Below the pieces are notes generated by a model. It was not told the origin of the DNA. It saw only the letters and a program-made list of their open reading frames with translations, and did no database searches. Both the position numbers and the translations under genes were made by a program. This document shows, piece by piece, positions 52,143 through 63,911 of a stretch of DNA of 64,000 bases (position 1 is the first letter of the stretch; every line of letters begins with the position of its first letter). Origin of the DNA: Elusimicrobiaceae bacterium (lineage in GTDB: Bacteria > Elusimicrobiota > Elusimicrobia > Elusimicrobiales > Elusimicrobiaceae); assembly GCA_017528825.1 (NCBI GenBank), contig JAFXOI010000005.1:1-64000 (forward strand), given 5' to 3'.

Positions 52143-53270
52143 TTAGTGCATTTGTGTCAGTAAGGCCGCCGCTTGTTCATTTCCGTTGTCGCGCGCCTGT
52201 TGCAACCACCGGCGTGCTTCATTGCGGTTGGCTTTGACCCCAATACCGCGGTAATAGGATTGCCCCAGCACATATTGAGCATCCGCATGGCCTAATTCTG
52301 CCGCCTGCTTAAAAGAAGACATAGCCGCCCGAATATTCTTGGCGGTACCTTGGCCCTGCATTTGCATAATTCCGCGCATATACAAACCGCCGGCATGATT
52401 TTGCTGGGCCGCTAAGTCAAACCACCGAAAGGCGATTTGATATTCTTCCGGATTTTGGGCCATTTGGTAAATACGGTCCCCTACTTCATACTGAGCACGG
52501 GCATCGGCCCCTTCGGCCGCTTTCTGTAAATATTCCAAGGCTTTTAGTTCGTCTAATCGAGTTGGGACCATGTACCACTGATACAAGGCATATTGCGCTT
52601 GCGGCACATTTGAATCAGCCAGTTTTTTGTACCATGCCTCGGCCTGCTCGTCATTTTTTTCCAAAGCGTCCCCATTCTGATAGGCCTCTGCTAAAACAAG
52701 TGTTTCTGCATTAACCTCCGATTGCGCTTTTTGCTCCAACTCGACTAATTGTTTAACTCGGTCAACCAGTCCCGGATTTTCACTTTGTAATTGCTCTAAA
52801 GCAGCTTGTGCATCCGGATCGTTTTGGGCACTGGCTTTTATCCACCACCAAGCCGCTTGTCCAAGATGCTCGGGCAGATTTTCGGTACCTGTTTGATATA
52901 GACGCCCCAAAGCATACTGGGTCGGTGCATAATTTTTTGCCGCCGCCAACTTCAAATAAGAAACGCCGGAATCTATATCCCGCTCCAGTTTTTCCCCTGT
53001 TAAATAGAGCTGCGCCAGCTCATAGGCAGCCGCGCCATCTCCCTGTGCGGCCGCTTTTTGATACCATGCCACCGCTTGCGACACGTCCGGAGTGATTACT
53101 TCTCCTGCCAAATAGGCTTGTGCCACTTGCATTTGTGCGGCGGCTTGCCCTTGACGGGCTTGAGCCAATGCAGCCTCAAAGGCTTTGCGTTGGGGGCTTT
53201 TATATAACACCCCGTACACAATGGCCCCGATAACAGCCGCCGCTACCATGCATCTTAACAAGGTTTTCAT
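52143..53270 (-). CDS. Sel1-like repeat (TPR-type) protein
   Basis: A 375-residue protein with an N-terminal signal anchor (residues about 5-24) and about eight Sel1-like repeats, each with the A-x-x-x-L/Y-x-x-G core (AQAYLAGEVITPDVSQAVAW, AQLYLTGEKLERDIDSGV and so on). Such repeats form alpha-helical scaffolds for envelope protein complexes. It follows the SPFH gene by 4 nt, and both follow atpC, so it is probably carried on the ATP synthase transcript. Confidence 0.82.
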   Translation of the reverse strand: MKTLLRCMVAAAVIGAIVYGVLYKSPQRKAFEAALAQARQGQAAAQMQVAQAYLAGEVITPDVSQAVAWYQKAAAQGDGAAAYELAQLYLTGEKLERDIDSGVSYLKLAAAKNYAPTQYALGRLYQTGTENLPEHLGQAAWWWIKASAQNDPDAQAALEQLQSENPGLVDRVKQLVELEQKAQSEVNAETLVLAEAYQNGDALEKNDEQAEAWYKKLADSNVPQAQYALYQWYMVPTRLDELKALEYLQKAAEGADARAQYEVGDRIYQMAQNPEEYQIAFRWFDLAAQQNHAGGLYMRGIMQMQGQGTAKNIRAAMSSFKQAAELGHADAQYVLGQSYYRGIGVKANRNEARRWLQQARDNGNEQAAALLTQMH

Positions 53271-53274
53271 GAAT

Positions 53275-54084
53275 TTATTTTACCATGACAAAGGGCATTT
53301 CGCCGCCAGCCATATACGTCGGCATGCGGCCATCCCATTTCTCAATGGCTTTCAGTTGTGCTTCCACTTGGCGCAGTTTAATCAAGTTGTCGGATACCAC
53401 TTCGCGTTGCAAACGCAACGATTTGGCTTCGGCTTCTGCCTGCAAGATTTTCTGCTCGGCTTCTTTTTTCACTTTTTCCACTAAATTGGTCGCACGTTTG
53501 GCTTCTTGTTCGGCAATTTGTTTCTCTTCTACGGCTTTCAAAAATTGCGGAGAAAAATCAAAGTCCGTAATGGCGATGTCCGATACAATCACTTGTTTTT
53601 CGTTCATTTTAGACTTCAAAATTTCATCTAGTTCCTGCGCCACTTGTACCCGGTTAGAAATTACTGCTTCGGCGGAATATTTTGCTAGTACGGCTTTAGT
53701 CCATTCTTCCACCATAGGACGTAACACCGTGTTGGTATAATCCGGGCCTAAGTTGCGATAAATAGAAATAATCGTATCGGGCAGAATGCGGTGGTTAATA
53801 GCCAAGGTTAATTTCACCGTCTGCAAGTCTTTTGAAAAAGCTTCTGTTTGGAAAGAATCTTTTTTAATACGCACGGAGAATTTTTCCACTTGGTCCACAA
53901 ACGGAATTTTGGTATGGATACCTTCCGTATAAGAGTCCACTATTTTACCGAAGCGCAACTTGACTGCTACGCTGCCCGCCGGTACCGTGAAATAAGAACC
54001 CAAGGCGATGACCAGAAAGAACCCGAAAATCACCACCCATATTAATCCTATTACTGCTTTTGCTTCATTGCTGACATTTCGCAT
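53275..54084 (-). CDS. SPFH/prohibitin-family membrane protein
   Basis: A 269-residue protein: one N-terminal transmembrane segment (about residues 10-32), the SPFH/band-7 domain (VPAGSVAVKLRFGKIVDSYTEGIH onward, abbreviated) and a C-terminal helical region rich in Ala/Glu/Lys (EQEAKRATNLVEKVKKEAEQ). It resembles prohibitin/HflC-like ring scaffolds that organise membrane microdomains. It follows atpC by 18 nt with a strong AAGGAGAAATT site. A role in ATP synthase or protease control is only inferred from position. Confidence 0.88.
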   Translation of the reverse strand: MRNVSNEAKAVIGLIWVVIFGFFLVIALGSYFTVPAGSVAVKLRFGKIVDSYTEGIHTKIPFVDQVEKFSVRIKKDSFQTEAFSKDLQTVKLTLAINHRILPDTIISIYRNLGPDYTNTVLRPMVEEWTKAVLAKYSAEAVISNRVQVAQELDEILKSKMNEKQVIVSDIAITDFDFSPQFLKAVEEKQIAEQEAKRATNLVEKVKKEAEQKILQAEAEAKSLRLQREVVSDNLIKLRQVEAQLKAIEKWDGRMPTYMAGGEMPFVMVK

Positions 54085-54102
54085 AATTTCTCCTTGTTAA
54101 TT

Positions 54103-54516
54103 TTAACCTAAGTGACGGTGTTTTACTTTCATACGGGCCAAAGCCTGTTTGATTTCCAACTCCGCCAATTCAAAATCAATATCCGCATCTTTGCGGGAAA
54201 GAGATTCTTTGGCACGTTTGATTTTTTGTTTTTCTTCTTCCTCATCTATCTCGTCTACCAAATCGGCCCCTTCCGCAAATATATTAACTTCTTCACGCAT
54301 AATTTCCGCAAAGCCGCCCAAGACGGCAAATTCGTTTTCCGTATCGTTTTCTTTGTAACGCAAAGAACCAAATCCCAGTTGCACCACCATGGGAATATGC
54401 CCCGGCAATACTCCCATTTCTCCCGATAAAGTAGGCAATACAACAGACTGTATCGGCAAGTCCTTGAGCAACTGTTTTTGCGGAGTAATTAAATTAAGCG
54501 TAAAGGTTTTGGGCAT
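54103..54516 (-). CDS. atpC: ATP synthase epsilon subunit
   Basis: A 137-residue subunit with the beta-sandwich N-domain (FTLNLITPQKQLLKDLPIQS, GILPGHIP-type text as GVLPGHIPMV) and a helical C-domain. It rides on the rotor with gamma and can inhibit ATP hydrolysis. It follows atpD by 2 nt. Confidence 0.94.
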   Translation of the reverse strand: MPKTFTLNLITPQKQLLKDLPIQSVVLPTLSGEMGVLPGHIPMVVQLGFGSLRYKENDTENEFAVLGGFAEIMREEVNIFAEGADLVDEIDEEEEKQKIKRAKESLSRKDADIDFELAELEIKQALARMKVKHRHLG

Positions 54517-54518
54517 AC

Positions 54519-55939
<1,421 letters not shown>

Positions 55940-55960
55940 AATTTATTCTCCGCTTCAAAA

Positions 55961-56869
55961 TTAACCGTTCAAGGCTTCGGCCCCGTTCACGATGTCCAAA
56001 ATTTCATTGGTAATGCCGGCTTGACGTACTTTGTTGAGTTTTACACCCAACGCTTCGGCCAATTCTCCGGCGTTCTTGCTGGCCGCGTCCATGGCATTCA
56101 TGGTGGCCGCCAAGTTGGCAGCTTGGCTCTCCAGCAAGATACGATACATATTTGCTTTTATCAGGCGAGGAACTAATGCGTGGAATATTTCCTTAATACT
56201 GGGCTCAAATAAAAATTCCGTTTGATCCTCTTTTTCCTGTACCATCGGCCAAGCAGCAAAAGGCAACATCGTTGACTGCACCAGCTGTTGGCTTCCCATC
56301 GATTTGAAATCATTGTACAGCAAAGTTACGGAAGACAAATTCTGTTCAAAATACTCTTTCAAAACAGCCTCTCCCAATAACTCCGCATGGGCATAAGTAA
56401 CCTTTGGAAAAATCCCTACGCTACTATAGACAATATGGATATTTTCCCGTCGGAAACGACTGATAAAATCTTTGCCTTTTTTACCGATACAAAACACAAA
56501 AACATCTTGTTCTTGATGTTCTTTTAAGAAGGCAACCGCCGCGCGTAAAATCACCGCGTTAAAAGAACCTGCCAGTCCTTTGTCACCGGTAATAACGATT
56601 AAGCCCAATCTGTTGGGATCTGCGGTTTTGTTGACTAACAAACGAGAAGCCCAACTCTCTTTCACGTCTTCCTGCTCCGGTAACGCCAGTACTTCTTGTT
56701 TCAAATCCCCCACCATCTCCAGCATTTTTTTAGCAAACGGACGAGCCTGTTCCATCGCTTGTTGCGCTTTACGAATGCGCGCGCTGGAAATCATCTTCAT
56801 GGTTTGCATGATTTGCTGGGTAGAGCGAATGGCCTTGATATTTTGGCGTATATCGCGCAACGATTCCAT
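55961..56869 (-). CDS. atpG: ATP synthase gamma subunit
   Basis: A 302-residue central-stalk subunit: N-terminal helix IRQNIKAIRSTQQIMQTMKMIS (abbreviated) and C-terminal helix with ASKNAGELAEALGVKLNKVRQA, which together form the coiled-coil rotor shaft. ITGDKGLAGSFN is in the Rossmann-like part. In most operons it directly follows atpA; here an epimerase gene is between them. Confidence 0.95.
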   Translation of the reverse strand: MESLRDIRQNIKAIRSTQQIMQTMKMISSARIRKAQQAMEQARPFAKKMLEMVGDLKQEVLALPEQEDVKESWASRLLVNKTADPNRLGLIVITGDKGLAGSFNAVILRAAVAFLKEHQEQDVFVFCIGKKGKDFISRFRRENIHIVYSSVGIFPKVTYAHAELLGEAVLKEYFEQNLSSVTLLYNDFKSMGSQQLVQSTMLPFAAWPMVQEKEDQTEFLFEPSIKEIFHALVPRLIKANMYRILLESQAANLAATMNAMDAASKNAGELAEALGVKLNKVRQAGITNEILDIVNGAEALNG

Positions 56870-56877
56870 AACAATCC

Positions 56878-57807
56878 TTAATTTTCTTTTTTACCTTCCA
56901 AAATAGCCACATAATCTGCGATGGCTGCTTCTAGAGTAAAGTCGGGCGTATAGCCTGTTTTCTCTTTGGCAAGACTCATATCGGCTTCTGTTTTGTTTTG
57001 GAAGAACGGATACGGATTATCGATATATTCCGGTTCCAAATTCGTACCCAGTTCATGATTTAAGCAATTAATAATGTCATTATAACTGCGGGCAATCCCC
57101 GTGGCAGCATTGAGTACACAAGTTTCTTTGCCGTTTTTCATGGCGCATAAATTGGCTTTGACAATATCTTTTACGTACACAAAATCACGCATTTGTTCGC
57201 CGTTTTTAAACACGCGCGGGCGTTTGCCTTCTTTCATTTGTTTATACAACTGATACACCATGCTGGCCATTTTGCCCTTGTAATATTCCCCCGGGCCAAA
57301 CACATTAAAATAACGCAAACCGATGATCTTCATATCTTGGTGGTCTTGCGAAAATTTGCGTGCCAAATTATCATCAATGACTTTCGAAAAACCATACACA
57401 TTTTCCGGATGGGTCGGTTGCGTTTCTTTCATCGGCACCGCTCCGTTACCATAGGTGGCGGCAGAGGAAGCATAAACTACTTTGCGGATTTCATTTTCAG
57501 CCGCATAATTCAAAATATTGCGAAATGCCTCTACATTCTGGCGCATCATTTCGAGTTGGTCCATCACGGTAGTATCGGTAATAGCTGCCTCGTGGAAAAT
57601 ACCGTCATAATAATCCGGCTCCGGCAATTCTTCAAACAAATTAATTCCGTACACATCGCCCTTAAAACCAATTAAATTTTTGAAATGGCCATTGTGCTTA
57701 AAATCGTCCACTACGGTTACTTCGTGGCCTTGTGCCTCCAAAGTTTTGGCAATATTACTGCCGATAAAGCCAGCACCGCCGGTTACTAAATATTTTTTCT
57801 TATCCAT
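56878..57807 (-). CDS. hldD: ADP-L-glycero-D-manno-heptose-6-epimerase (HldD-like) within the atp operon
   Basis: A 309-residue extended short-chain dehydrogenase: NAD(P)-binding TGGAGFIGSN, SSAATYGNG, the YGFSK catalytic tyrosine/lysine and RYFNVFGPGEYYKGKMASMV, which match HldD more closely than GalE. HldD makes the heptose precursor of lipopolysaccharide inner core. It is wedged between atpA and atpG with gaps of 9 and 8 nt, so it must be co-transcribed with the ATP synthase. This placement is unusual. The alternative is another nucleotide-sugar epimerase. Confidence 0.85.
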   Translation of the reverse strand: MDKKKYLVTGGAGFIGSNIAKTLEAQGHEVTVVDDFKHNGHFKNLIGFKGDVYGINLFEELPEPDYYDGIFHEAAITDTTVMDQLEMMRQNVEAFRNILNYAAENEIRKVVYASSAATYGNGAVPMKETQPTHPENVYGFSKVIDDNLARKFSQDHQDMKIIGLRYFNVFGPGEYYKGKMASMVYQLYKQMKEGKRPRVFKNGEQMRDFVYVKDIVKANLCAMKNGKETCVLNAATGIARSYNDIINCLNHELGTNLEPEYIDNPYPFFQNKTEADMSLAKEKTGYTPDFTLEAAIADYVAILEGKKEN

Positions 57808-57816
57808 AAATATCTC

Positions 57817-59343
57817 CTATTTATTGCCTTTGAAAATTTCTTGGAACTTTGTCAACGCATCATCTATTTGAACCGTTAAATCATCGGTCAATTCGCTTGC
57901 TGTATCCAGTGCGTCCATGAGCTCTTTCTGTTGTGCGTCTGCCCATGCTAACAGTTGTTTTTCATATGCACGGACATTTTCAACTGCCACACTATCGGTA
58001 TATCCGTGCACGCCTGCATACAATACCAAGATTTGCTGACTTAGACGCATGGGTTGATATTGGTCTTGCTTTAGCAGTTCGCTCATGCGTTTGCCGCGTT
58101 CGATTTGGCGTTGGGATTCTTTGTCTAGTTCAGAACCAAACTGCGCAAACCCGGCCAGCTCTTGATATTGTGACATATCTACGCGCAATGTACCTGCCAC
58201 TTTGCGCATGGTTTTGCGTTGAGCCGAACCGCCCACGCGGGAAACAGATAACCCCACATTAATAGCCGGTTTGGTACCGCTTAAAAACAAACTGCTTTCC
58301 AAATAAATTTGTCCGTCCGTAATAGAAATTACGTTAGTCGGAATATAGGCAGAAACGTCATTGGCCTGCGTTTCAATAATAGGCAGTGCCGTCAAGGAGC
58401 CGCCGCCGTTTTCTTGCGATAATTTGCACGCACGTTCTAACAGGCGGGAATGCAAATAAAAGACGTCTCCGGGGTATGCTTCGCGGCCGGGAGGACGGCG
58501 CAGCAGCAAAGACATTTGACGATACGCCTGTGCATGTTTAGACAAATCATCATACACAATCAGCACATCTTTGCCTTTCCACATAAAATATTCCCCGATT
58601 GCACATCCGGCATAGGGAGCAATGTATAAGAGAGAAGCCGGATCTGCCGCCGTAGCAGCTACCACGGTGGTATATTCCATCGCTCCGAAATCTTGCAAGG
58701 TTTTCACCACTTGTGCAACGGTACTGTTTTTCTGTCCGACAGCAACGTAAATACATAAACAACGTTGCTCTTTTGGCAAATTCTTTTGGTTGATAATAGC
58801 ATCAATAGCAATAGCTGTTTTACCGGTTTGACGGTCTCCGATGATTAGTTCGCGCTGTCCTTTACCAATAGGCACCAAGGCATCTACCGCCTTCAAGCCG
58901 GTTTGCAAAGGTTGTTTTACCGGTTGGCGCTCTACGATACCCGGAGCAACAATATCCAGCGGCATATTTTTTTCTGACGGGATTTCTCCTTTACCGTCTA
59001 ACGGACGCCCTAACGGATCTACTACCCGTCCGATGATTTGTTCGCCTACCGGGATGCTGATAACTTCCCCGGTGCGTTTCACGGTAGCACCCTCTTGTAC
59101 CTGATCGTCCGGCCCCATTAATACGCAGCCGACGTTATCATATTCCAGGTTCATGGCCATGCCTTTAATGCCGTGGCCAAAATCCACCAGCTCAGATGCT
59201 TTCACCTCTTTGAGCCCGTACACACGCGCAATACCGTCACCCACCTGAATGACAGTACCTACTTCACTCAGATCTGCCCGTGTATCAAAATTTTTTATTT
59301 TTTCTTCAATAATATTGGTTATTTCTTCCGGTCTTATCGCCAT
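57817..59343 (-). CDS. atpA: ATP synthase alpha subunit
   Basis: A 508-residue alpha subunit with P-loop GDRQTGKT, the alpha signature [15 protein letters not shown] and [17 protein letters not shown]. Complete N-terminal beta barrel and C-terminal helical bundle. It follows atpH by 13 nt. Confidence 0.97.
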
Positions 59344-59356
59344 AATCGCACCGTAA

Positions 59357-59881
59357 TTATCTGGTTAATTCTTCTTGCAATTTTTCAAAACGTCCCTGTA
59401 CAGAACCGTCTAACAACGTATCTCCCATACGCACCCGCAAACCACCTAAAAGTTCCGGTTTGACGGCAAATTGGCCTTGAATTGTTTTGCCGGTGAATTT
59501 TCCTAACGTCTGTTCCACCCGCTCTTGTTGGGCTTTGCTTAGTTCAAAGGCTGTTTCCACATGGGCCCGCATTACACCCATGCGCTCGTCTAATAGTTGC
59601 TGGGTTTGCGACACACAGGCCGCTAATAAATAATATCGCTTCGCCTCCAGCAACGTCTCAATAAACTGCGCCGCTATCCGCTCCGTTACTACCTCTGAAA
59701 CAAATTCTTTTTTCTGTTTCAATGGAACCGACGGATCCTGCATATAACCGGCAGCACGCTCCAGTAGCGCAGCGGCTTGTGCCAAATTTTTACACACGAA
59801 AGCCGCCTGTTCTGCATCAGGACTTAGTGCATCCAATGCGCGGGCATAACGACGAGCTAAAATGCGGTCTGTACTTTTCAT
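59357..59881 (-). CDS. atpH: ATP synthase delta subunit
   Basis: A 174-residue peripheral-stalk subunit with [11 protein letters not shown] at the N-terminus and a C-terminal [24 protein letters not shown] block, the family signature. It links the F1 head to subunit b. Spaced 4 nt from atpF. Confidence 0.93.
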
Positions 59882-59885
59882 ATCT

Positions 59886-60383
59886 TTATACGCGGGAGCT
59901 AATATCGTTTAATACTTGCTCCACCAGTTGCTCCGAAGCAGAAGCATTGAGTTGTTGTTGCGTCAAACGTTGCGCTGCCAGTAATGCCGTGCGGGCAATC
60001 TGGGTACGCGCCTCTTTCAACGCTTTTTCCTTTTCCGCTTCTATCTGTTCTTTTGCCTGAGCTAATAAATGCGCCGCTTGTTCTTGCGTTTGCGCCAATA
60101 ATTGCTCTTTTTGAGTGTTGCCGATGGCCACCGCTTCTTGGATTTTTTGAGCGGCTTGCTGCGAAATATGTTGCAACTTTTCATCTAGGGCTTGTTTGAG
60201 TTGCTCAGCTTCCGCACGTGCCTGAGCCGCCGCCGTTTGATTATCCGCAATTTGCTTTTCACGGCGATCCAAAGCCGCTATCAGGCCTTTCCATGCCAGC
60301 TTATGCAATAACCACACCAGTAGCAAAAAATTGACAACTGTTAGCGCCAAAACCCCAAAATCTGGATTTAATAATTGATCCAT
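59886..60383 (-). CDS. atpF: ATP synthase b subunit
   Basis: A 165-residue subunit: one N-terminal transmembrane helix (about residues 8-28), then a long Ala/Glu/Gln/Lys-rich coiled coil to the C-terminus. Only one b-type gene is present, so the stalk is likely a homodimer. Confidence 0.94.
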   Translation of the reverse strand: MDQLLNPDFGVLALTVVNFLLLVWLLHKLAWKGLIAALDRREKQIADNQTAAAQARAEAEQLKQALDEKLQHISQQAAQKIQEAVAIGNTQKEQLLAQTQEQAAHLLAQAKEQIEAEKEKALKEARTQIARTALLAAQRLTQQQLNASASEQLVEQVLNDISSRV

Positions 60384-60403
60384 ATCCCCTGCCTATTGGG
60401 CAA

Positions 60404-60631
60404 TTACATGACCATGGTTAATAAACAAATGACCAGACCCAACATCGCGGCCCCTTCCAACAAAGCGGCGATAATAATCATGGTCGTGCGGATGCTGTTA
60501 CCGGCTTCCGGTTGACGGGCCGTTCCTTCCAAGGCCGCAGTACCGATTTTACCCAGTCCCAATCCGGCTCCGATTACCGTTAGTCCGGCTCCGATACCGG
60601 CCGCGATAAATTTCAATGCAGTAAGTTCCAT
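60404..60631 (-). CDS. atpE: ATP synthase c subunit
   Basis: A 75-residue hairpin proteolipid: helix 1 with GIGAGLTVIGAGLGLGKIG, a polar ARQPE loop and helix 2 with the ion-binding Glu in ALLEGAAMLG. The Gln in helix 1 and the Ser/Thr after Glu that mark sodium-binding c rings are absent, so proton coupling is inferred. Between atpB and atpF as usual. Confidence 0.95.
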   Translation of the reverse strand: MELTALKFIAAGIGAGLTVIGAGLGLGKIGTAALEGTARQPEAGNSIRTTMIIIAALLEGAAMLGLVICLLTMVM

Positions 60632-60664
60632 ACGTTTCTCTCCTTTTGCGGTTTCCCGCGTAAA

Positions 60665-61426
60665 TTAATGCGAATGAATCACAAGTCCAACATAAATTGA
60701 CGTCAGTAGCGTAAATACATACGCCTGTAAAAATGCTACCAACAATTCCAAAAACGTCATAAAAATCTCAAGGCCCATCGCAGGGATGGCCGAGCCGACG
60801 CCGGCTATTTTGCTCATTTGTCCGATGATAAAAACGATTAACAATAAGCTAAGCAACACCATATGCCCCGAAAGCATATTGGCAAACAAACGAATAGCCA
60901 ACACGCAAACACGAATGAGTAAGCTGATTACTTCCAGCGGGAAAATAAGCGGCACGAGCCACCACGGTGTCCCGCCGGGGACAAAGGTTTTAATAAAACC
61001 GACCGGCCCGTGAAATTTAATACCGCAATATACAATTAACGCGCCGGAACAAAGGGCCAGTCCTCCCGTTACCGAAATGTTAGAAGTAATGGTTTTGACT
61101 TCCGGAATTAAGCCGGCTAAATTAGAAAATAAAATAAACAGGAAAAGTGTGCAAAAGTAAGACAAAAAGGTTTTCCCTTCCACGCCCATACCGGGGATGA
61201 CAATACCGTCGCGCATAAAACCCACATACTCTTCCCCAGCGGTACGCATTAGGCGGGCAAACACGCTCTTCCCCTGGCGGGACAACAACCATCCCGTTAG
61301 CAAAAGGATGATACTAATGCAAAACATGGTAACAGTATGCGCCGTCAAAGGTAGATGAATCGTACCTAACATGACCCCAAAATCGTGGTCCAAAATATGA
61401 TGCGCAATCGTTTGAGATACTTCCAT
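60665..61426 (-). CDS. atpB: ATP synthase a subunit
   Basis: A 253-residue membrane subunit with about six helices. The essential Arg is in RLFANMLSGHMV, and the C-terminal helix carries the ELLVAFLQAYVFTLLTSIY motif. It forms the ion half-channels next to the c ring. Start ATG 61426 has AAAGGATC 7 nt upstream. Confidence 0.95.
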   Translation of the reverse strand: MEVSQTIAHHILDHDFGVMLGTIHLPLTAHTVTMFCISIILLLTGWLLSRQGKSVFARLMRTAGEEYVGFMRDGIVIPGMGVEGKTFLSYFCTLFLFILFSNLAGLIPEVKTITSNISVTGGLALCSGALIVYCGIKFHGPVGFIKTFVPGGTPWWLVPLIFPLEVISLLIRVCVLAIRLFANMLSGHMVLLSLLLIVFIIGQMSKIAGVGSAIPAMGLEIFMTFLELLVAFLQAYVFTLLTSIYVGLVIHSH

Positions 61427-61429
61427 GTA

Positions 61430-61663
61430 TTAAGATCCTTTCCGTTTGTCTTGTGTGGCTAGGCGGCGCGCTTCTTTGATGACGATATACATCCCCAGCG
61501 CAAAGCCCAGTAGCACTCCTGCTAAAATCCCCCACGGAGTAGTCTGCCAATGTTTATCGGCCCAAAAGCCGCCCGCTGTGCCTAGTGCCACCGCAGTGGC
61601 AAATTCTAAACCAAGGGTAGTAATGGCAACAGTATCTTGTGCGTTAAACGGCCCCATACGCAT
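61430..61663 (-). CDS. AtpI/AtpZ-like small membrane protein
   Basis: A 77-residue protein with two transmembrane helices separated by the short HWQTTPWGIL loop, the shape of AtpZ/AtpI-type proteins that open many atp operons. They are linked to c-ring assembly or Mg transport. ATG 61663 has AGGAG 7 nt upstream; a longer frame from 61717 has no ribosome site. It is first in the operon, 3 nt before atpB. Confidence 0.8.
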   Translation of the reverse strand: MRMGPFNAQDTVAITTLGLEFATAVALGTAGGFWADKHWQTTPWGILAGVLLGFALGMYIVIKEARRLATQDKRKGS

Positions 61664-61696
61664 GACAAATCTCCTCTCGCAACAGGGGATACTTAT

Positions 61697-61702
61697 ATTA
61701 TA
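61697..61702 (-). promoter_or_regulatory. -10 element of the ATP synthase operon
   Basis: TATAAT on the minus strand 33 nt before the first operon start. Upstream is a T8 run; the -35 at 17 nt (CTGCAT) is weak. The 5' flank of 134 nt to the pilin stop has no gene. Confidence 0.5.
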
Positions 61703-61797
61703 AAAAAAATCCGCCAAAAATGCAGGGGATGTTTTAGGGGAGAAAAATTAATAATACGCAATTATAGGATCGAAGATGATATATTTTCTATAAGTCT

Positions 61798-62292
61798 TTA
61801 CATCCTATACATCCGACAGAAATCTTTTGTACACGTCCCATTTCCTATATACACCCCTTCCGTTTTGCACAATTGATTATATTTGTCCGTTGAATTCTCC
61901 GTAAAAGCCCAACAGACTGTCTCCGGAAAACTTCCCACAAAGTAATGTACATATCCATTCTGTAACGTTTGCGTATTTTCACAATGTACACGACCATAAC
62001 TCGTACCAATCTCTGCTCGGCAATATCCCCATGGATAGGAACACTGATTCTTACTCTGATTTAGAGTGCAACCGCTGGGAAGCATGTCTAAAGCCGTCAT
62101 ATCGTTGGTATAGGTTCCATTGGCCATAAAATATATTTTTTCTGCCTGATACAAGGCGTCTGTAGCTGCTTTCAATGTTGCAAACCGACTGCGCATGACT
62201 GCCTTTTCATACTGCGGCAAGGCAATCGCAGACAAAATGCCGATAATTAACACAACTACTAACAATTCAATGAGCGTAAATGCTTTTTTCAT
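61798..62292 (-). CDS. Type IV pilin-like protein (no structured leader)
   Basis: A 164-residue pilin precursor, MKKA|FTLIELLVVVLII, then ALPQYEKAVMRSRFATLKAA. Ala replaces Gly at -1. The head has several cysteines, with GNGTCTKDFC near the C-terminus. ATG 62292 follows AGGAAGATGT; the longer frame to 62412 contains no pilin-like text before it. The upstream region has TTGCCA (62337-62342) and a short T tract but no spacer of normal length. Seven pilins with nearly the same N-terminal 45 residues and unlike heads now lie in this window. Confidence 0.92.
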   Translation of the reverse strand: MKKAFTLIELLVVVLIIGILSAIALPQYEKAVMRSRFATLKAATDALYQAEKIYFMANGTYTNDMTALDMLPSGCTLNQSKNQCSYPWGYCRAEIGTSYGRVHCENTQTLQNGYVHYFVGSFPETVCWAFTENSTDKYNQLCKTEGVYIGNGTCTKDFCRMYRM

Positions 62293-62321
62293 ACATCTTC
62301 CTGTGATAATTTTCTTAAATG

Positions 62322-62342
62322 ATACTAAAAAATAATTGGCAA
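62322..62342 (-). promoter_or_regulatory. Promoter-like region of pilin 7 with a shortened spacer
   Basis: TTGCCA (62337-62342) and TAGTAT (62322-62327) match the -35 and -10 of the 237-265 pilin promoter and share the AACGCTTG flank, but only 9 nt with a T6 run separate them, where 17 nt with T12 is found there. The element may be off, or another -10 may be used. Confidence 0.35.
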
Positions 62343-62450
62343 GCGTTTTCTTTTCCTCCATAAGAAAAGGACGCCTCGCAATAATAAGACAGGATACCAT
62401 AAAAAAACGCAAGACAAAAATGCCTTGCGTTTTTTGGAGAATAGAATTAT

Positions 62451-63911
62451 TTACATCTGATAGGTAAAAATTTTGCTTTCAAAGGGTTTGAGTTCTATTT
62501 CAAATCCCTGTTGACCCATTTCCGGTGAGTAGGCTATCTCCGTCTCGGAAAATTCCTCACGTACATTGCCGGCCGCGGGATTAATTTTAAATTTCACTCT
62601 TCCTTTGGCAGGTCGATCACTGTAATTAATCAGTACCATAGATACCGTATTCATTTGTTTCCAAGTCCAGCTCAAAATGTTGCGGTTTGTTTCATCTTCT
62701 TCGGAAACAGGCATTACATCAAACAAAGCCCATTGCCCGCCGTGGAAAGTAGGTTGATTGGCAATTTTGAGCAATTTGTCATAGTAATTGCGAATCGAAA
62801 TATCTTCCGCAAAATCATCCTGCACATATTGAATGGGTAAGCGGCGGGTGCGCCCCATCAGCTGAAACAAATAGATCATACGTGCACCGGGCAAGGTGGC
62901 AATCAAGGTGCTGGCCGCCAAAGATTTTTCCCGGCCGAAGGCCTGTATACATTCTTCTTCGTCGTGGTTAGTGGTAAAGCGGATCGAACGCATCTGAAAT
63001 AAATGTTCGGCGCGCAAATGGCCTTTAATATCTTCCGGATTAGAAAAGCGTAAGCGGTCATAGAGCACTTTATCGTACGTATAATCAAAACCCAATTGCT
63101 GTATTTCCCACTCCAGTCCCCAATATACTTCGGCGATAAATGTAAAATCCGGATATTGTTGATGCACCGCTTCCAACGCGCAGGACCAAAATTCTTCTTT
63201 GGGCAAATTCCCGCCGATAAATTCCCACCATGTATCCCGATGTACTTTATTAAGCCCGAGCATGGCCATATCGCAACGGACCCCATCGCACAAGCTGGCT
63301 ACGTGCAACAGATTTTGCAACATTACTTTTTTCGTTTCGGGATTAAAATAATTGAGTTGGGCCGTATCTGTCCACGGAGCAAAATAGGGGTCGCGCCCGT
63401 GGGCAATCCACACTCCGTTTTGATTTTGGAAAAACCAATCTTTGTGATTGTTCGGCTCGTGCGTGCCGGTATTGATATACAAATCGGGTGCTTCGGTTAC
63501 CATCGGGCAATCTATCGCCGTATGATTATGCACAAAATCAAGCAGCAACGAAATACCCATGGCATTTAGTTTTGCGCGCAATTGTTTTAAACTATCTTCT
63601 CCGCCTAAATCTTCCGCCGGTTCATAAGCATATACAGCGTACGGAGAAGCCATAATGTGATCTACGGAAAAATCCGGTTTTACCGCGCGAATTTGCGCTT
63701 GGATATCCGCGTTCTGACGGGCGATTTCGGTAGCTTTAGGGCTTTGTTTCCACACGCCCATCAACCACACAGCATCAAAACCGCGGTCCTTAAACAATTG
63801 CCAATACTCATCGGGAATTTCATGCAACAAAAATGTCCGCCCGTGTTTGGCCGCCAAACGACTCAACCAAGCGCGTGTGTTGATTTCTAAGATGTGTGGA
63901 TTGGTTCGCAT
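62451..63911 (-). CDS. GH13-type alpha-amylase family enzyme
   Basis: A 486-residue cytoplasmic protein (no signal peptide) with the TIM-barrel signatures of GH13: LLLDFVHNHT (beta-3), GVRCDMAMLG with the nucleophile Asp, FIAEVYWG with the acid/base Glu, and TTNHDEE at beta-7. The C-terminal part is a beta-rich domain C. The opening ILEINTRAWL resembles glycogen- or maltodextrin-acting GH13 members such as maltosyltransferase-like or debranching enzymes; specificity cannot be set. A promoter TTTACA, 18 nt, TATAAC and a GGGAG ribosome site precede it. Confidence 0.87.
   Translation of the reverse strand: MRTNPHILEINTRAWLSRLAAKHGRTFLLHEIPDEYWQLFKDRGFDAVWLMGVWKQSPKATEIARQNADIQAQIRAVKPDFSVDHIMASPYAVYAYEPAEDLGGEDSLKQLRAKLNAMGISLLLDFVHNHTAIDCPMVTEAPDLYINTGTHEPNNHKDWFFQNQNGVWIAHGRDPYFAPWTDTAQLNYFNPETKKVMLQNLLHVASLCDGVRCDMAMLGLNKVHRDTWWEFIGGNLPKEEFWSCALEAVHQQYPDFTFIAEVYWGLEWEIQQLGFDYTYDKVLYDRLRFSNPEDIKGHLRAEHLFQMRSIRFTTNHDEEECIQAFGREKSLAASTLIATLPGARMIYLFQLMGRTRRLPIQYVQDDFAEDISIRNYYDKLLKIANQPTFHGGQWALFDVMPVSEEDETNRNILSWTWKQMNTVSMVLINYSDRPAKGRVKFKINPAAGNVREEFSETEIAYSPEMGQQGFEIELKPFESKIFTYQM

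What the first reader, a model, noticed from the sequence alone, without database searches (positions are those of the whole stretch)
56878..57807. Heptose epimerase gene placed between atpA and atpG
The operon reads atpI/Z-B-E-F-H-A-hldD-G-D-C with gaps of 8-9 nt around hldD. ATP synthase subunit genes are rarely interrupted. It ties a lipopolysaccharide-core sugar gene to energy metabolism and indicates either a lucky insertion or co-regulation.
Basis: partly seen in the sequence, partly recalled or inferred. Interest (0 to 1): 0.5.

Follow-up and report, generated by a model that had tools for sequence, protein, structure and literature searches.

The report
LPS-sugar gene inside ATP-synthase operon
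In this gut bacterium (phylum Elusimicrobiota) a gene for making a cell-surface sugar sits in the middle of the ATP-synthase operon, and the same odd arrangement is found in nearly all relatives checked in its class, so it is an old, stable passenger rather than a recent accident, with no evidence yet of a working link between the two processes.

Summary
Observation confirmed: atpA-hldD-atpG, all on the minus strand, with 9- and 8-nt gaps. HldD passes TIGR02197 (295 vs 274.6 bits) and keeps the catalytic residues. It is the genome's only TIGR02197 match; GmhA, HldA, GmhB and HldC candidates lie at three other loci. The bacterium is in Elusimicrobiales. hldD sits between atpA and atpG in 95 of 101 class genomes with atpG; of the other six, one has a further insert there, one is cut by a contig end and four lack it. 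Outside the class: 0 of 33 stretches. So it is an ancient insertion, mainly inherited vertically. Two of the four carry hldD elsewhere and two have no close copy, with ATP-synthase genes kept. In sister families the same operon part holds PilZ, Yip1 and other genes. Best reading: a co-transcribed housekeeping passenger in an insertion-tolerant operon; regulatory coupling is possible but unshown. Ten literature searches found no description. Moderate interest: a class-level signature and natural test of operon passengers, not a new system.

The parts
56878..57807 (-). hldD (rfaD): ADP-L-glycero-D-manno-heptose 6-epimerase, 309 aa, the passenger gene
   Evidence: TIGR02197 295 bits > cut-off 274.6; H. 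pylori HldD 3sxp best by sequence (225 bits; 317 bits by profile) and by fold (Z 38.3, 42% id); S115/Y138/K177 match E. coli S116/Y140/K178
57817..59343 (-). atpA, F1 alpha subunit, directly upstream (9-nt gap)
   Evidence: TIGR00962 802 bits
55961..56869 (-). atpG, F1 gamma subunit, directly downstream (8-nt gap)
   Evidence: TIGR01146 253 bits; Pfam PF00231
54519..55939 (-). atpD, F1 beta subunit; frame change near 55.86 kb in this assembly
   Evidence: TIGR01039 743 bits from position 37 of the model onward; upstream frame compared with relative L036
54103..54516 (-). atpC, F1 epsilon subunit
   Evidence: TIGR01216 101 bits
59357..59881 (-). atpH, delta subunit
   Evidence: TIGR01145 82 bits
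59886..60383 (-). atpF, F0 b subunit
   Evidence: TIGR01144 84 bits
60404..60631 (-). atpE, F0 c subunit
   Evidence: TIGR01260 59 bits
60665..61426 (-). atpB, F0 a subunit
   Evidence: TIGR01131 148 bits
61430..61717 (-). atpI/atpZ-like first gene of the operon
   Evidence: PF09527 ATPase_gene1 56 bits; no NCBIfam match

Best explanation
hldD is a housekeeping passenger of the atp operon. In an ancestor of the class Elusimicrobia a copy of hldD landed between atpA and atpG, with its own ribosome-binding site and no recognisable terminator, so both neighbours stayed expressed. Its product makes ADP-L-glycero-D-manno-heptose for the LPS core from precursors made by genes elsewhere in the genome. 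Being read from a strong, growth-linked, always-on transcript was good enough, so the arrangement was kept by descent. It was later undone in a few lineages by moving the gene out or losing it. Shown: position, family, conserved catalytic residues, class-wide conservation, low protein divergence, scattered pathway genes, and genomes without it. Inferred: co-transcription, direction of the events, and absence of a functional link.
For: Position and gaps. Identity. Only TIGR02197 match (E up to 1e-40) in the own genome. GmhA-, HldC-, HldA- and GmhB-like genes at three other loci. Conservation: genus 50 of 51 (the other, G172, is cut by a contig end), other genera of the family 13 of 13, second family of the order 22 of 24, other families of the class 10 of 13. 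Outside the class 0 of 33. Mainly vertical: the family groups of the HldD tree recur in the AtpA+AtpD tree, though the deepest branches are weak and differ. Low dN in five pairs, 0.030-0.110 for hldD against 0.060-0.087 for atpA. Passenger character: hldD elsewhere (G088, G158) or no close copy found (G052, G109) in four genomes with atpA and atpG adjacent, and unrelated genes in the same operon in sister families.
Against: The arrangement persists in 19 genera by the tool's codes (20 with G045), longer than simple drift of a passenger would suggest, so selection for the position is not excluded. The AU test rejects all atp-located HldDs as one clade (p 0.0024): the f4 copies group with copies located elsewhere in f3 and f9, so either the gene moved out or it entered the same slot twice. 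hldD has the highest codon-usage score relative to the atp genes of the five pathway genes (0.794; others 0.670-0.775), a weak hint of tuned expression. No transcript data. dS is near saturation, so dN/dS is only indicative.
Confidence: 0.72

Rival explanations
1. Selected co-regulation: placing hldD in the atp operon keeps heptose supply (outer-membrane growth) in step with ATP-synthase synthesis and growth rate, and selection for that holds it in place.
For: Kept in 95 of 101 class genomes with atpG; short spacers and occasional 4-nt overlaps; hldD scores highest of the five pathway genes in codon usage relative to the atp genes, 0.794.
Against: No other heptose gene travels with it. G088 and G158 have hldD elsewhere, and no close copy was found in G052 (89% complete) and G109, all with the ATP-synthase genes kept. 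The codon difference is small: gmhA 0.763 and hldC 0.775.
Confidence: 0.17
2. Recent or strain-specific insertion, or an assembly join.
For: The window's genome is a draft in 41 contigs, and its atpD shows a frame change.
Against: Same junctions in many other assemblies, including a genome in a single contig (G090, L116) and named records from several animals.
Confidence: 0.01
3. The protein is not HldD but another sugar-nucleotide epimerase of the extended SDR family.
For: Eight class genomes of other families have their best match just under the TIGR02197 cut-off (259-274 bits). The group is far from the E. coli-type HldD (branch about 2 changes per column). In the fold comparison UDP-sugar epimerases fill ranks 2 and below (Z 36.4 down) and E. 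coli HldD 1eq2 comes only at rank 30 (Z 34.0).
Against: The window protein is above the cut-off. Best relative by sequence and fold is H. pylori HldD, and the four best by profile are all named HldD. Catalytic residues kept in 32 of 32. It is the only candidate for the last step of an otherwise present ADP-heptose pathway in this genome.
Confidence: 0.07
4. HldD or ADP-heptose acts on the ATP synthase itself (a physical or allosteric link).
For: Only the gene order.
Against: Four genomes have the ATP-synthase genes without hldD in the operon. The model is an SDR fold over its whole length, matched to single-domain epimerases from residue 1 to 309.
Confidence: 0.03

Closest known systems
HldD/RfaD, ADP-L-glycero-D-manno-heptose 6-epimerase (TIGR02197; E. 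coli rfaD, H. pylori HP0859, PDB 3sxp, 1eq2)
   Same: Family score, extended-SDR fold, S/Y/K catalytic residues, last step of the ADP-heptose pathway
   Different: Forms its own deep group apart from E. coli RfaD and from nine of ten HldDs sampled in other classes of the phylum; position 38 is not the Lys of the E. coli-type group (0 of 32 atp-type rows against 11 of 12), so cofactor preference may differ; located in the atp operon instead of beside waaF/waaC as in E. coli
Bacterial F1F0 ATP synthase operon (atpIBEFHAGDC)
   Same: Order and content of the subunit genes
   Different: A non-subunit gene between atpA and atpG; in sister families further non-subunit genes or stretches between atpA/hldD, atpG/atpD and atpD/atpC

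Membership tests
HldD (ADP-glyceromanno-heptose 6-epimerase) | Score over the curated TIGR02197 cut-off | tested here: met
   295 bits vs 274.6; eight relatives in other families of the class lie at 259-274
HldD (ADP-glyceromanno-heptose 6-epimerase) | Catalytic Ser116, Tyr140, Lys178 of the E. coli enzyme (roles recalled) | tested here: met
   S115, Y138, K177 in the window; 32 of 32 atp-type rows keep all three
HldD (ADP-glyceromanno-heptose 6-epimerase) | Extended-SDR fold closest to solved HldD | tested here: met
   Model pLDDT 86.7; best 3sxp Z 38.3, rmsd 1.9, 297 aligned; UDP-sugar epimerases follow from Z 36.4, and other HldDs come lower (1eq2 rank 30, 2x6t rank 37, 4ej0 rank 49), so the fold alone does not settle the substrate
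HldD (ADP-glyceromanno-heptose 6-epimerase) | Rest of the ADP-heptose pathway present | tested here: met
   HldA 371 bits (cut-off 345), HldC 191 (181.5), GmhB-like 131 with the broad HAD model (84.15) though under the GmhB equivalog cut-offs, GmhA-like 188, under its cut-off of 209.45
HldD (ADP-glyceromanno-heptose 6-epimerase) | Converts ADP-D,D-heptose to ADP-L,D-heptose | not testable with these tools
   Needs an enzyme assay
F1F0 ATP synthase operon | All eight subunit genes present in one run | tested here: met
   atpB,E,F,H,A,G,D,C each above the cut-off of its general NCBIfam model, on one strand; atpD with a frame change in this assembly
F1F0 ATP synthase operon | hldD co-transcribed with the atp genes | not testable with these tools
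   Spacing 9 and 8 nt; promoter- and terminator-like sites in 53000-62500 not above shuffles, 15 vs 16.5 and 13 vs 11.1, though two minus-strand promoter-like matches lie inside hldD

The most novel reading that the evidence does not exclude
In the class Elusimicrobia the atp operon works as an envelope-and-energy regulon: LPS heptose supply (hldD) and, in sister families, PilZ, Yip1 and barrel proteins are deliberately expressed with the F1 subunits, so that outer-envelope growth follows ATP-synthase synthesis; the position is held by selection.
Probability: 0.12. Interest if true: 0.65.

Novelty: new variant of a known kind. Interest (0 to 1): 0.36.

Why it matters
ATP-synthase gene order is among the most stable in bacteria (general knowledge), and a non-subunit gene held inside it through most of a class is a clean natural experiment on how operons take up and keep unrelated genes. 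It also gives a marker for the class and a practical warning: polar mutations in atpA of these bacteria might also cut LPS heptose (inference). If the coupling reading were true it would link outer-membrane synthesis to energy-machine production through simple gene order.

Tried and rejected
Recent insertion: rejected by conservation. Assembly artefact: rejected, since many other assemblies and a genome in a single contig show it. Other SDR identity: considered, kept at low weight. Special codon usage of hldD: hldD scores 0.794 relative to the atp genes, against 0.670-0.775 for the four other pathway genes and 0.651-0.749 for atp genes left out one at a time; small numbers, so I draw nothing firm from it. 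Own promoter or terminator around hldD: scan not above shuffles; this covers sigma-70-like sites only. All atp-located HldDs as one clade: rejected by the AU test (p 0.0024), which I read as exit of the gene in f3/f9 rather than repeated entry, but cannot prove.

Tree notes: the first HldD tree was disturbed by one long row (own GalE-like SDR, L002), dropped. The two trees agree on small groups but not on depth: f7+f8 go weakly with f3+f9+f4 in the HldD tree and with f1+f2 in the AtpA+AtpD tree. In one search the row L125 has a branch of 6.55, probably because atpD runs off that stretch and a wrong frame was taken; it was not removed. The 84 genus rows for spacers count some genomes twice and rest on automatic start choice; the genome counts in this report do not. 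E. coli-type HldD outside the phylum was sampled by one sequence only, so the order of deep branches is not a claim. NG86 gave no dS for several atp gene pairs. G172, counted as cut by a contig end, has no TIGR02197 match at E up to 1e-40 in its assembly, so its hldD may be unassembled or absent. G052 was searched for hldD with the window protein only (best 34% identity) and not with TIGR02197. I could not test phyla other than Elusimicrobiota for atpA-hldD-atpG: the single genome-contig scan used close-relative patterns; of its 18 loci 16 bear Elusimicrobi- titles and two say only uncultured bacterium. Outside the class I fetched 34 stretches of the 67 genomes with an atpG match; one of the 34 (L172) held no atpA match, so the count is 0 of 33. 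The heptosyltransferase stretch L219 was fetched; only a search for the window's atp-region proteins was run on it (no match).

Literature: (search listings with abstract starts only, no paper opened) gave no description of hldD or any LPS gene inside an atp operon; the library lacks most subscription journals, so absence there is weak.

Full report
What is there. The ORF 56878-57807 is on the minus strand, 309 aa, between atpA (57817-59343) and atpG (55961-56869), with 9- and 8-nt gaps and a ribosome-binding-like sequence before each start. The whole run is atpI/Z-like, B, E, F, H, A, hldD, G, D, C.

What it encodes. TIGR02197 scores 295 bits (cut-off 274.6); the next models are a second HldD model (PRK11150, 184) and GalE (125), both under their cut-offs. 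The closest solved protein is H. pylori HldD, 3sxp, by single-sequence search (225 bits), by profile (317 bits) and by predicted fold (Z 38.3, rmsd 1.9, 297 residues, 42% identity; model pLDDT 86.7). UDP-sugar epimerases follow in fold from Z 36.4 down, and E. coli HldD comes only at rank 30 (Z 34.0), so fold alone does not settle the substrate. The residues aligned to E. coli Ser116, Tyr140 and Lys178 are kept in 32 of 32 atp-located HldDs examined (their catalytic roles are recalled). The protein is 36% identical to E. coli RfaD. It belongs to a group split by a long branch from the E. coli-like HldD; nine of ten HldDs sampled from other classes of the phylum are E. coli-like, and the tenth (f13) falls with the window's group. 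Position 38 is Lys in 11 of 12 rows of the E. coli-like group and in none of the 32 atp-type rows, so cofactor preference may differ (inference).

Pathway. In the own genome hldD is the only match to TIGR02197 at E up to 1e-40. The nearest other SDR (L002) scores 128 bits with that model and 200 with GalE. GmhA-like (188 bits, under its cut-off of 209), HldC (191.6), HldA (371.6) and a GmhB-like HAD protein (131 bits with the broad model; 138 with the GmhB model PRK08942, cut-off 178) are present, on contigs 35, 17 and 25. HldA and GmhB lie in one run beside genes that look, by eye, like kdsB, an acyltransferase and lpxK. Five places in the own genome reach the PF01075 cut-off of the heptosyltransferase superfamily, one of them only with its neighbours in the frame; a sixth is below it. 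So the pathway looks complete and scattered, and no second step of it lies in the atp operon.

How widely it is conserved. The organism is in Elusimicrobiales: 16 of 18 named relatives bear Elusimicrobi- titles, two say only uncultured bacterium; the titles mention reindeer, water buffalo, sheep, roe deer and yak, and one is Candidatus Avelusimicrobium excrementipullorum. Genome by genome: same genus 50 of 51; the remaining one, G172, is cut by a contig end and has no TIGR02197 match at E up to 1e-40 in its assembly. Other genera of the same family 13 of 13. The second family of the order 22 of 24; the other two are G052, where atpA and atpG are adjacent without hldD, and G045, where hldD-atpG is kept but atpA lies on another contig that carries the start of hldD and then an unrelated gene. 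Other families of the class: f4 2 of 2, f7 7 of 7, f8 1 of 1, and 0 of 1 each in f3, f5 and f9; the f6 genome G116 has no convincing ATP synthase. Together 95 of 101 genomes with an atpG, plus G045 with a further insert. Outside the class 0 of 33 stretches with both atpA and atpG (34 fetched of 67 genomes with an atpG match). There 51 of 78 genomes have a TIGR02197 match of 363 bits or more, while the atp-located copies listed in the same search reach at most 322 bits. One of the class genomes (G090) is a single contig of 1,643,562 bases, which I recall as the size of Elusimicrobium minutum Pei191.

History. Small groups agree between the HldD and AtpA+AtpD trees (f2 genera together, f7 genera together, f3+f9+f4 together), so the gene was mainly inherited within the class; deeper branches are weak and differ, f7+f8 going with f3+f9+f4 in one tree and with f1+f2 in the other. 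The copies of f3 and f9 lie elsewhere in the genome, in both cases near a gene that looks like smpB (by eye), yet they nest with the atp-located copies of f4, and the AU test rejects all atp-located copies as one clade (p 0.0024). A further copy elsewhere, in f13 (G069, no atpG match), also falls in this part of the tree. On the AtpA+AtpD tree at least three changes of state are needed. The simplest reading is one ancient entry, then exit or loss in f3/f9, f5 (no TIGR02197 match at E up to 1e-40) and G052; a second entry in f4 is not excluded.

Is the slot special? In 20 genus loci checked, none has a stretch of over 330 nt beyond hldD between atpA and atpC; in the other genera of the family 2 of 13 have one between atpA and atpG, and in the second family 1 of 24 has one between atpG and atpD. 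In the 13 genomes of f3-f9 with ATP synthase, 6 of the 10 with hldD have such a stretch next to hldD, 9 of 13 between atpG and atpD, and 2 of 13 between atpD and atpC. Outside the class the numbers are 1 of 33, 0 of 33 and 0 of 30. These are distances between matches, not proven genes: 5 of the 6 beside hldD hold a sense ORF of 141-164 aa, and one of the nine between atpG and atpD (L129) holds none of 60 aa or more. The genomes are related, so these are not independent events. Scanned examples: PilZ proteins in G160 and twice in G109, Yip1 and a barrel-like protein (below the Pfam cut-off) in G158, a barrel-like protein (likewise) in G088, DUF4932 in G162. Three others gave nothing above a curated cut-off: 142 aa before hldD in G128 (no match), 178 aa in G168 and 168 aa in G088 (weak matches only). 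This supports an operon that tolerates guests, as a lineage property.

Mechanism. I commit to the passenger reading: hldD is translated from the atp transcript at its own ribosome-binding site, supplies the last step of ADP-heptose synthesis, and stays because constant, growth-linked expression suits it and because removal needs a precise event. Divergence: dN of hldD 0.030-0.110 in five pairs against 0.060-0.087 for atpA, but dS of these two genes is 1.2-2.7 and near saturation, so ratios are rough. Against a tuned link: the pathway is scattered, and four genomes have the atp genes without hldD in the operon. In favour of a tuned link: persistence, and a slightly high codon score of hldD (0.794). 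Transcription itself was not measured.

Novelty. My ten literature searches (listings only) showed no paper describing this. I rate it a new variant of a known operon, moderately interesting.

Noticed in passing
window 54519-55939, near 55860: atpD of this assembly has a change of reading frame about 26 codons after its start, while intact copies exist in relatives such as L036. Probably a sequencing or assembly error in a draft genome, since the gene is otherwise well conserved.
   Followed up: partly
L127, L141 (also by eye L128, L130, L133, L137), between atpG and atpD: PilZ-domain genes sit between atpG and atpD in other families of the class (two in tandem in L141). Pfam confirmed three proteins; the rest were only seen as similar ORFs.
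   Followed up: partly
L135 6012-6710 and 8195-8923; L139 atpG-atpC region: In families f9 and f3 a barrel-like protein (under the Pfam cut-off) lies between atpG and atpD, and in f9 a Yip1-domain membrane protein (by eye also in f3) lies between atpD and atpC.
   Followed up: partly
L204 3951-4937 (G133): One genome of the window's genus has a second HldD of the E. coli-like type (387 bits), about 38 kb from the atp-located one, perhaps gained from outside.
   Followed up: partly
L082 and L222 (G045): The start of hldD occurs on two contigs, each joined to a surface-protein-like sequence (by eye): it looks like a further insertion between atpA and hldD with a duplicated stretch of hldD.
   Followed up: partly
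L168 4086-4976 (G149, outside the class): A 296-aa ORF that looks like an N6-adenine methyltransferase (motif recalled, not scanned) lies between atpA and atpG of a short contig.
   Followed up: no
L201, L202: Where hldD is outside the operon (f3, f9) it lies close to a gene that looks like smpB (by eye) in both genomes, which may mark a shared alternative location.
   Followed up: no
window 53275-54084; L042-L045, L047, L053: An HflC-like gene (named by eye) follows atpC directly in the window but begins about 2.4-2.6 kb after atpC in these six relatives.
   Followed up: no
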